NCBI RefSeq assembly: GCF_012027615.1
Contig: NZ_SNUT01000005.1
Span: 62,001 to 126,000 of the forward strand
DNA: 64,000 nucleotides
From: Thermococcus sp. 21S7
Lineage (GTDB): Archaea > Methanobacteriota_B > Thermococci > Thermococcales > Thermococcaceae
Direction: 5' to 3'
This document shows, piece by piece, positions 11,656 through 54,938 of the stretch; within the stretch, counting starts at the first letter, position 1, and every line of letters begins with the position of its first letter. The translations under genes and the position numbers were made by a program. The notes under the pieces are model-generated. The model had not been told where the DNA came from, did no database searches, and saw only the letters and a list, made by a program, of their open reading frames with translations.

Positions 11656-11745
11656 ATGGAGCGGTTAGAGATTGCCGTAATAGAAATCCGGGGAAAATGT
11701 CCCGTTTTTAGCCCGGGGGACAGAATCGTGATAGAGGGGGCCAGC
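11656..11745 (+). pseudogene. TIGR04076 family gene, 5' part, interrupted by a TnpB element
   Basis: ATG 11656 opens a frame reading MERLEIAVIEIRGKCPVF then SPGDRIVIEGAS, which is the N-terminus of the small TIGR04076 family (IRGKCPV...GDRIVIEG). The frame breaks off into transposon sequence at 11746. Joining 11745 directly to 13217 restores one open frame of 110 codons (…IEGAS-VKLDETDAICTHAF…), so this was one gene before the insertion. The family has no assigned function. Confidence 0.85.
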
Positions 11746-11900
11746 CTGACCTCCTCCCCGTCCTGAAGGGCGGGGGTTCCAGCGAGTTAACCCCTCACCA
11801 ACGGCAGGGAAGTTTGAGGGGTTCTCATCAGGGTAACCCTGGAAAAGGGTTCTTCGAACCCCTCTGGGACGGTCTTGCCCCGGTTACCCCTCCCTTGGGC
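11746..11900 (-). ncRNA. Predicted omega/re-RNA of the TnpB element (boundaries approximate)
   Basis: TnpB nucleases use an RNA that runs through the 3' end of tnpB into the right end of the element and takes its guide from the flanking host DNA. The hairpin at 11756-11775 downstream of the tnpB stop fits the scaffold. The guide would then read GCTGGCCCCCTCTATCAC on the minus strand (11745 downwards). The 5' limit near 11900 is a guess from the general arrangement, not from a visible signal. Confidence 0.4.
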
Positions 11901-13103
11901 ATACAAACCGCCCAAGTTCGGGGTTATGGTTTTCACCACCTTCTTTAAAATATTAAACGCTCCAACAAGGTCAGCATTCATAACAACGCCCTCCCTGTGG
12001 CACTTGAATAAACCCCTAAAGATTCTTCCATTAGAATGGCATTGGCCACAGAGAGGGCAAGTTTGAGAAGTGAAAGCCTCATTCACGACTTCAACGACAA
12101 TACCATACTCTTCCGCAACCTCAGTCAAGCGTTTGATAACGTAATTAAACCGCCACACGTGGGAGAGGAGGAAATTTTGTTTTGCTCCTCTCTCGGAGTT
12201 TCTGGCGATTCCCTTTGGGTAACCAACGACTATTCTTGAGACGCCTAAATCGTAAAGCCTCCTGACAGTCTGCCTTACGGCAGTATTAATGTAGTGCTTT
12301 GCTTGGAGTTTGGCCTTTTCGTGCATTCTTTTGAGTTTCCTACTTGCCTTAGCACCAGATTTATTGAGTTTTGACTGATAGTCTGCAATTTTCCGCCTCC
12401 AGTAGAAATCAATGCTCTTCAATGGCCTCCCATTGACCAGAAAACTCTCCCCATTCTCCACGTAAACGGCCATCAGATTGTTCACTCCCAAATCAATTCC
12501 TGCCGAAAGGCTTCCCCTTGGAGTTCTTGGAAGTTTAATCCAATTCTCACCCTCAAGTTTTTCCTCAACGGTGAAACTCAAGTGAGCATACCATTTTCGC
12601 TTTACTTCGTCGTAAGTGATTTCTAACCTCCCTTGCTTGCCCTTCAGGTGTATTTTCCCCTTGAACTGGAGTTTGAGTTTTCCGAACTTACCGAGTCGTC
12701 TCAATTCGATAACGTTTCCATTAATCCGATACTGGTCGTTCCTGAGGAGGATTATGAAGAGTTTTCTACCGTTCTTTTCCCTAATGAATTTCGGTGGTCT
12801 TGGCTTGAACCACTCGGGAAGTTCACCATTCTTTTTCTTTCTGTTGAGGGTGAAGAAAGAACGCCACGCTTCGGCGTTCTTTCGAGCTAATTGTTGGACT
12901 GTTGAGCCGCCAATCCAGTTTTTGAACTCGTGGTAGGCCTCTTTTTCAGTTGTTGAGAAGTCGATTTTGCCGAATTCTTTGAATTGTTTGAGTCTCTCGT
13001 AGTTAAGTTTGTTCCAGATTACTGCTGTAGCGTAGGCTAACTCGAAGAGGATTTTCTCCTGTTCTCTTGATGGTTGAAGTTTAACCGTTACTGTCCGCTT
13101 CAT
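11787..13103 (-). CDS. tnpB: TnpB (OrfB) RNA-guided nuclease
   Basis: A 438-residue full-length protein with no internal stops. It has the N-terminal OrfB helix-turn-helix region, the RuvC-I block GIDLGVNNLMAVY, the zinc-binding region CPLCGQCHSNG...FKCHREG, and the RuvC-III Asp in MNADLVGAFNIL. The RuvC-II position, usually an acidic residue, reads VVGYPKG, and a Glu occurs later in VVNEAFTSQ; this may be a rearranged active site. It cuts DNA at sites matching its guide next to a short motif and helps the element persist. The C-terminal ~45 residues probably also encode the RNA scaffold. Confidence 0.93.
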   Translation of the reverse strand: MKRTVTVKLQPSREQEKILFELAYATAVIWNKLNYERLKQFKEFGKIDFSTTEKEAYHEFKNWIGGSTVQQLARKNAEAWRSFFTLNRKKKNGELPEWFKPRPPKFIREKNGRKLFIILLRNDQYRINGNVIELRRLGKFGKLKLQFKGKIHLKGKQGRLEITYDEVKRKWYAHLSFTVEEKLEGENWIKLPRTPRGSLSAGIDLGVNNLMAVYVENGESFLVNGRPLKSIDFYWRRKIADYQSKLNKSGAKASRKLKRMHEKAKLQAKHYINTAVRQTVRRLYDLGVSRIVVGYPKGIARNSERGAKQNFLLSHVWRFNYVIKRLTEVAEEYGIVVEVVNEAFTSQTCPLCGQCHSNGRIFRGLFKCHREGVVMNADLVGAFNILKKVVKTITPNLGGLYAQGRGNRGKTVPEGFEEPFSRVTLMRTPQTSLPLVRG

Positions 13104-13216
13104 TTCAAAGTATGGTACGGTTTTTGGGCTTTAAAAAAGATTGCTTTCCCGTTTAACGGCTAATTTACAGAATACTCTACCCCGCCCTAAAGGGCGAGGC
13201 TTGTGAAAAGAAAAAT

Positions 13217-13459
13217 GTCAAACTCGATGAGACCGATGCGATTTGCACCCACGCCTTTGCATCCCTGCTACCATACATAGTCGCCCTGCGAAAGGGTATT
13301 AAGCCAAGCGAACTAGGCCTTGGCAGGGGAGAAAAAGCGTACGTTCAGTGCCTCGACCCCGGCCCGCCGTACACAAACGGTGGAACCGTAATCTTCGAGA
13401 TAACGGTGGTGAGAGATGAAGCAGAGGAAGGCGTGGAGGATAGTGAGGGAGGTAGTTGA
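13217..13459 (+). pseudogene. TIGR04076 family gene, 3' part
   Basis: This open stretch of 80 codons continues the frame broken at 11745. It holds the family's conserved core DETDAICTHAFASLLPYI, VALRKGIKPSELGLG and YVQCLDPGPPYTNGGTVIFEI. It has no start of its own after the insertion. Its last 44 nt overlap the start of the downstream GTPase gene at 13416, so the two were probably translationally coupled. Confidence 0.85.
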
Positions 13460-54431: not shown

Positions 54432-54893
54432 CTGACTTCTTCTCCACATTAGTCAGGTTCCAACTGGTTAACCCTCACCAACGGCAGGGAGGTTTGAGGG
54501 GTCCTCGTTATGGAATCCTTTAGAACGGGTTCTTCGCTGTGCCCTTGGGATAACCACGATAATCCTCGAAACACCCCAAATCGTAAAGCTTCCTGATCGT
54601 TTGTCTCATCACAGTGTTAATGAAGTGTTTCACCTGAAGTTTAGCCCCCTCATGCAGTCCCCCGAGTTTTCTGCTCGTTTCGATTGCCCTCAGGTGTGTT
54701 CTTTCCTTGGACTAACTAGAAGGCGTTTTTCTTGAGTTTTTGAGTGCTGGAGTTTTAGTGCTACCGTTCGCTTCATTTTAAAAGTAGGATATGGTTCTTG
54801 GGCTTTAAAATATAGTTCGCTTTCCTGGGTGATTGCTCGCTGGGTTGTTCACTGCACCCCCGCCGCGAACGGCGAGGCTTCCAAAAGAAAAAT
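54432..54893 (-). mobile_element. Decayed TnpB-only element in the origin region
   Basis: This 462-bp remnant keeps both ends of the element at 11746-13216 (CTGAC…CCCTCACCAACGGCAGGGA on the left; GGCGAGGCTT…AAAAGAAAAAT on the right). It also keeps pieces of tnpB, for example the stretch around ATCGTAAAGC..CCTGA near 54590. Roughly two thirds of tnpB is deleted and the rest carries stops, so no protein is made. The flank at the left end on its own strand is CATTAC, comparable to TTTGAC at the intact copy. Confidence 0.85.
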
Positions 54894-54938
54894 GTAATGT
54901 TATTAACCCCTTTGTCCAAAGTTCTATTGGTGGTTTAC

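What the first reader, a model, noticed from the sequence alone, without database searches (positions are those of the whole stretch)
11656..13459. Precise TnpB-element insertion into a TIGR04076 gene, with predicted guide and target motif
Deleting 11746-13216 restores an uninterrupted 110-codon TIGR04076 gene with no duplication, so both element ends can be set to the base. The implied target motif on the tnpB strand is TTTGAC (TTGAC), and the guide next to the right end would be GCTGGCCCCCTCTATCAC. TnpB should therefore recognise and cut empty alleles of this very gene.
Basis: partly seen in the sequence, partly recalled or inferred. Interest (0 to 1): 0.65.

Follow-up and report, generated by a model that had tools for sequence, protein, structure and literature searches.

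The report
RNA-guided jumping gene interrupting archaeal gene
A Thermococcus chromosome carries an ordinary kind of RNA-guided jumping gene that landed to the base inside a small gene, a close relative still has the uninterrupted site, and the element's family shows how such elements change their target motif.

Summary
Removing 11746-13216 rejoins a 110-codon TIGR04076 gene (71 bits). The nearest genome in the genus carries the empty site: 95.8% identity over 333 bp, no gap, no duplication, and the same AGC|GTCAAACTC junction. The right end (GGAGGAGGTCAG|) stops at the same base in nearly all element copies examined across the genus.

The element is a tnpB-only (IS1341-type) IS200/IS605 element. 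Two corrections:
(1) The target motif is TGAC, not TTTGAC. The next base out is free (T8 G6 C6 A3). TGAC elements carry CAAG before the left hairpin and TTAC elements carry AAAG, as IS608's DNA-DNA target pairing predicts. This foot switched once, together with the TnpB clade.
(2) The genome has no detectable TnpA, so the element was moved by a helper that is missing now.

The guide is supported by a conserved, covarying right-end RNA that matches Rfam HgcC and ends in the flank. TnpB's catalytic site is intact but rearranged (Ealt). No cleavage was shown. No empty allele exists in this genome, and the nearest relative's allele differs from the guide at positions 6 and 15.

New member of a known kind.

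The parts
11656..11745 (+). 5' part (codons 1-30) of the interrupted TIGR04076 gene
13217..13459 (+). 3' part (codons 31-110 and stop) of the TIGR04076 gene
11746..13216 (-). whole element, 1471 bp, tnpB-only IS200/IS605 (IS1341-type); its removal gives the join whose counterpart is the empty site in L168
11787..13103 (-). tnpB, 438 aa; NF040570 171 bits; D204, G294 at the canonical RuvC-II position, E342 (Ealt), D378
13217..13220 (-). target motif TGAC, retained in the left flank (TAM / IS608-type CL)
13200..13203 (-). left foot CAAG (IS608-type GL), covaries with the target motif
   Evidence: rule from PMC5934647
13180..13199 (-). left-end hairpin
   Evidence: sequence; arm
11776..11779 (-). 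right foot GAAC (IS608-type GR)
   Evidence: sequence; conserved in alignment A1
11756..11775 (-). right-end hairpin
11746..11749 (-). right cleavage motif TCAG (IS608-type CR)
11746..11929 (-). predicted omegaRNA scaffold, overlapping the 3' end of tnpB (HgcC match 11733-11864, sot0042 match 11755-11929, both below Rfam gathering score)
11730..11745 (-). predicted 16-nt guide GCTGGCCCCCTCTATC
   Evidence: position; length by analogy to ISDra2

Best explanation
This is a tnpB-only IS200/IS605 element of a Thermococcus family. A Y1 TnpA, not detectable in the genome now, inserted it as single-stranded DNA immediately 3' of a TGAC on the antisense strand of a TIGR04076 gene (inferred from the family's ends), with no target duplication (shown by comparison with an empty site). 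The target was chosen by pairing between TGAC and the CAAG foot of the left hairpin (inferred from covariation). The right end encodes an omegaRNA whose last ~16 nt come from the flank (inferred). With TnpB it should cut DNA carrying TGAC followed by GCTGGCCCCCTCTATC, that is, empty copies of this gene in the same population, so that repair copies the element in (inferred). Its own right junction is spared because TCAG, not TGAC, precedes the guide sequence there.
For: An empty site with the identical junction exists in G019. Right ends are identical across the family. TTAC goes with AAAG and TGAC with CAAG (about 20 and 20 against 3; Fisher p about 5e-9), and the foot changes once on the TnpB tree. 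The right foot and cleavage motif GAAC/TCAG also fit the IS608 pattern (GAAT/TCAA). The right-end RNA covaries: 80 two-sided cells against 32 expected, 96% of cells paired; fold z-score -3.8. HgcC and sot0042 match there, and HgcC RNAs are transcribed from transposase genes in T. kodakarensis (PMC4247193). The D, Ealt and D residues are invariant in 34 of 34, and the model matches TnpB and Cas12f structures. In this genome the closest match to motif plus guide is the element's own right junction, which reads TCAG.
Against: No Y1 TnpA in this genome, so transposition today is doubtful unless the 48-contig assembly missed one. Rfam scores at this copy are below the gathering threshold. Cleavage, RNA ends and the TAM of this TnpB are untested; the insertion motif is set by TnpA and need not equal the TnpB TAM. 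The fourth zinc-binding Cys is missing in the whole family.
Confidence: 0.85

Rival explanations
1. A dead fossil: insertion occurred as described, but with no TnpA in the genome the element and its TnpB now do nothing and will decay.
For: No Y1 TnpA in the genome; several paralogues in the genome are truncated or carry stops.
Against: This tnpB is open and full length with invariant catalytic residues, and its 3' end still folds as the family RNA. 15 of 61 genus genomes carry a TnpA that could come back.
Confidence: 0.25
2. TnpB here is a regulator, not a nuclease: the canonical RuvC-II glutamate is lost (G294), so it binds but does not cut.
For: G at the canonical position in 34 of 34 family members.
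Against: An invariant E342, in the exact ExxxxxxCxxC register of the alternative glutamate described for Fanzors and a D-hydrophobic-G clade of TnpBs (PMC10711439).
Confidence: 0.08
3. The flanks were joined by chance or the sequence is an assembly chimera; there was no insertion event.
For: Assembly is in 48 contigs.
Against: The joined gene is 95.8% identical, ungapped, to a natural orthologue; the other full-length copies in the same genome end at the same base.
Confidence: 0.01

Closest known systems
IS608 (IS200/IS605, Y1 TnpA; CL TTAC, GL AAAG, CR TCAA, GR GAAT)
   Same: Insertion 3' of a tetranucleotide, no duplication, subterminal hairpins, foot tetranucleotides that fit the same pairing scheme.
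   Different: No tnpA in the element or genome; this clade uses TGAC with CAAG, and TCAG with GAAC.
ISDra2 TnpB / reRNA
   Same: TnpB fold, right-end RNA with the guide taken from the flank, motif 5' of the target.
   Different: Rearranged Ealt catalytic site and a different motif (ISDra2 inserts at TTGAT).
D-hydrophobic-G / Ealt TnpB clade and Fanzors (PMC10711439)
   Same: Glutamate six residues before the first zinc CxxC.
   Different: RuvC-I is DLG, not the DPG of Fanzors; element ends are of IS200/IS605 type, not IS607.
HgcC RNA, RF00062 (T. kodakarensis HgcC1-3, PMC4247193)
   Same: The model contains the same GGGGAGGAGGUCAG followed by unconserved bases; transcribed from transposase genes.
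   Different: This copy scores 34 bits, below the gathering score of 50; the papers read here give HgcC no guide function.
IS1341-type sot RNAs of Halobacterium (RF02656)
   Same: Sense RNA overlapping the 3' end of tnpB; weak match 24.7 bits.
   Different: Far below the gathering score of 88.

Membership tests
IS200/IS605 superfamily | Insertion 3' of a fixed short motif without duplication | tested here: met
   Empty site in L168; TGAC/TTAC in the family
IS200/IS605 superfamily | Subterminal hairpins with foot tetranucleotides matching the cleavage motifs | tested here: met
   Foot/motif association, Fisher p about 5e-9
IS200/IS605 superfamily | Y1 TnpA in the element or available in trans | tested here: not met
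   0 PF01797 matches in this genome; 15 of 61 genus genomes have one. Hence filed as the tnpB-only IS1341 group, which lacks tnpA by definition
RNA-guided TnpB | Curated TnpB family score and fold | tested here: met
   NF040570 171 bits, cut-off 100; Foldseek to TnpB 8h1j E 8e-18
RNA-guided TnpB | Complete D-E-D catalytic triad | tested here: met
   D204, E342 (alternative position), D378 invariant in 34 of 34; canonical position is G294
RNA-guided TnpB | Structured right-end RNA ending in a flank-derived guide | tested here: inconclusive
   Scaffold covariation shown; HgcC model extends into the flank; 3' end of this RNA not measured
RNA-guided TnpB | Motif-dependent guided DNA cleavage | not testable with these tools
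   needs biochemistry
HgcC RNA (RF00062) | Score at or above gathering 50 bits | tested here: not met
   34 bits at this copy, 52.5 at paralogue L059
Fanzor / pro-Fanzor | DPG at RuvC-I together with Ealt | tested here: not met
   DLG in all 34 members

The most novel reading that the evidence does not exclude
In Thermococcus, one base change in the left foot (AAAG to CAAG), a new target (TTAC to TGAC) and a new TnpB clade arose together, so these elements would be a natural record of a transposon and its nuclease being retargeted in step. In addition, ~413-bp elements without tnpB, with dozens of copies across the genus, keep an omegaRNA and guide and would borrow TnpB in trans; together with the tnpB elements they would account for the HgcC RNAs of Thermococcus.
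Probability: 0.45. Interest if true: 0.62.

Novelty: new member of a known kind. Interest (0 to 1): 0.42.

Why it matters
It is a clean test case: base-exact ends, a natural empty allele, a predicted guide and a predicted motif, all in a genus that has genetic tools. The family gives a paired series of TGAC and TTAC elements in which TnpA target choice (DNA foot) and the TnpB motif can be compared directly, which bears on how a transposase and its RNA-guided nuclease stay matched.

Tried and rejected
Searched the genus for a second target of the guide: none with an intact TGAC and fewer than two mismatches. Considered an inactive TnpB because of G294: set aside after finding invariant E342. 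Considered that the G011 interruption of the same gene was a relative of this element: it is not, it is a different TnpB-like protein (TIGR01765). Rfam at gathering threshold gave no HgcC on eight further loci, so HgcC identity rests on one above-threshold paralogue and on the shared 3' sequence. A paper search for HgcC alone returned mostly unrelated cell-line papers. One alignment call failed on coordinates and was redone.

Full report
THE OBSERVATION. The window lies in a Thermococcus-type genome (G000, 2.37 Mb, 48 contigs; orthologue records named Thermococcus). Joining 11745 to 13217 puts ...GGGGGCCAGC next to GTCAAACTC... and gives 110 codons from 11656 to 13459, scoring 71.2 bits to TIGR04076 (cut-off 33). 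Against 30 orthologues fetched from the genus the join aligns mostly ungapped, but the codon at the junction varies, so those alone do not set the ends to the base. The decisive comparison is G019: its gene is 95.8% identical over all 333 bp with no gap, and reads GGGGCCCAGC|GTCAAACTCGATGAGACC, identical at the junction. There is no target duplication.

THE ENDS. The element has full-length paralogues in the same genome (84, 76, 76 and 75% identity) whose alignments begin at exactly 11746. Across the genus 49 of 61 genomes hold matches to it, and most full-length ones stop at the same base; their right ends read GGAGGAGGTCAG| followed by unrelated flanks.

THE MOTIF. Sorting left ends gives two classes, TGAC and TTAC. 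In 23 TGAC-class sites the preceding base is T8, G6, C6, A3 (hand count), so TTTGAC is not the motif. The four bases before the left hairpin are CAAG in TGAC elements and AAAG in TTAC elements, with about three exceptions (Fisher p about 5e-9; the 2x2 table 20,1,2,20 was tallied by hand). Related copies are not independent, so the p value overstates; on the TnpB tree the foot needs one change and the motif three. IS608 has TTAC with AAAG and TCAA with GAAT, and A+16 pairs with T-3 (PMC5934647); a T-to-G change at -3 with A-to-C in the foot is what that pairing predicts. The right side here is TCAG with GAAC, which fits the same way.

THE GUIDE. Rfam HgcC matches the minus strand at 11733-11864 (34 bits, below its gathering score of 50), and its consensus holds GGGGAGGAGGUCAG followed by unconserved bases. 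A paralogue reaches 52.5 bits. Twenty-nine right ends share a structure with 96% of cells paired and 80 two-sided changes against 32 in shuffles; this window's RNA folds at z = -3.8. T. kodakarensis HgcC1-3 are transcribed in sense from inside transposase genes (PMC4247193). By analogy with ISDra2 (about 16 nt of flank) the guide is GCTGGCCCCCTCTATC. A genus-wide search for motif plus guide with up to 3 mismatches finds no intact target in this genome. The element's own right junction matches but reads TCAG where the motif should be. Among the best matches in relatives (two mismatches) is the G019 orthologue itself, with mismatches at guide positions 6 and 15. So the predicted prey is narrow: empty alleles of the same or a very close population.

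THE NUCLEASE. TnpB is 438 aa (NF040570, 171 bits). The AlphaFold2 model (mean pLDDT 78) matches Cas12f and TnpB structures. The canonical RuvC-II glutamate is G294 in all 34 family proteins, while E342 is invariant and sits in the ExxxxxxCxxC register of the alternative glutamate. PMC10711439 describes an Ealt clade with a D-hydrophobic-G motif; this protein fits that, not the DPG Fanzors. The fourth zinc Cys is absent in the whole family. Catalysis is inferred, not shown.

MOVEMENT. No Y1 TnpA is found in this genome, while 15 of 61 genus genomes have one, some immediately upstream of a related tnpB with TTAC/AAAG ends (L099, L100). The simplest accounts are mobilisation in trans by a TnpA since lost, arrival already inserted by DNA transfer, or a TnpA missed by the assembly. 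TnpB's usual role of restoring the element after excision is then idle; acting on incoming or sister empty alleles remains possible. A drive of this type has been reported for IS200/IS605 on plasmids (PMC11870625).

VERDICT. The element is a new member of a known kind; the family around it is the more interesting material.

Noticed in passing
L066:1029-1442, L069:679-1091, L079:610-1027, L070; L201-L220: A ~413-bp non-coding element family with the same ends. Matches (including end-only ones) occur in 46 of 61 genus genomes. Its last ~150-200 nt align with the tnpB elements' right-end RNA, so it seems to carry an omegaRNA and guide but no tnpB; the upstream ~140 nt is also conserved and predicted to fold.
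   Followed up: partly
L067, L072-L078, L081-L083; 33 of 61 genus genomes: ~47-bp mini-elements with a left tail, one hairpin and a right tail (TTAC or TGAC | ATTTTTCTTTTGAAAGCC..GGGGAGGAGGTCAG |). 10 in this genome at up to 3 mismatches, none for the reversed control. Mobile like REP sequences, or left/right recombination scars: not decided.
   Followed up: partly
L127:1750-3194 (G011): The same TIGR04076 gene is independently interrupted near codon 49 in another species by a different TnpB-like element (TIGR01765, 360 aa).
   Followed up: partly
L128 (G017), L129 (G044): TIGR04076 orthologues read in more than one frame, i.e. look frameshifted, and some genomes have no match: the gene seems dispensable.
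   Followed up: no
window 54456-54895 (-): Decayed, internally deleted copy of a related element, ends TTAC/GAAG and TCAG.
   Followed up: partly
L084, L085, L086, L089: A second TnpB lineage in the same genome with a canonical RuvC-II glutamate (ALEDLT).
   Followed up: no
L139, L153: Two elements break the foot/motif rule (TTAC with CAAG, TGAC with AAAG).
   Followed up: no
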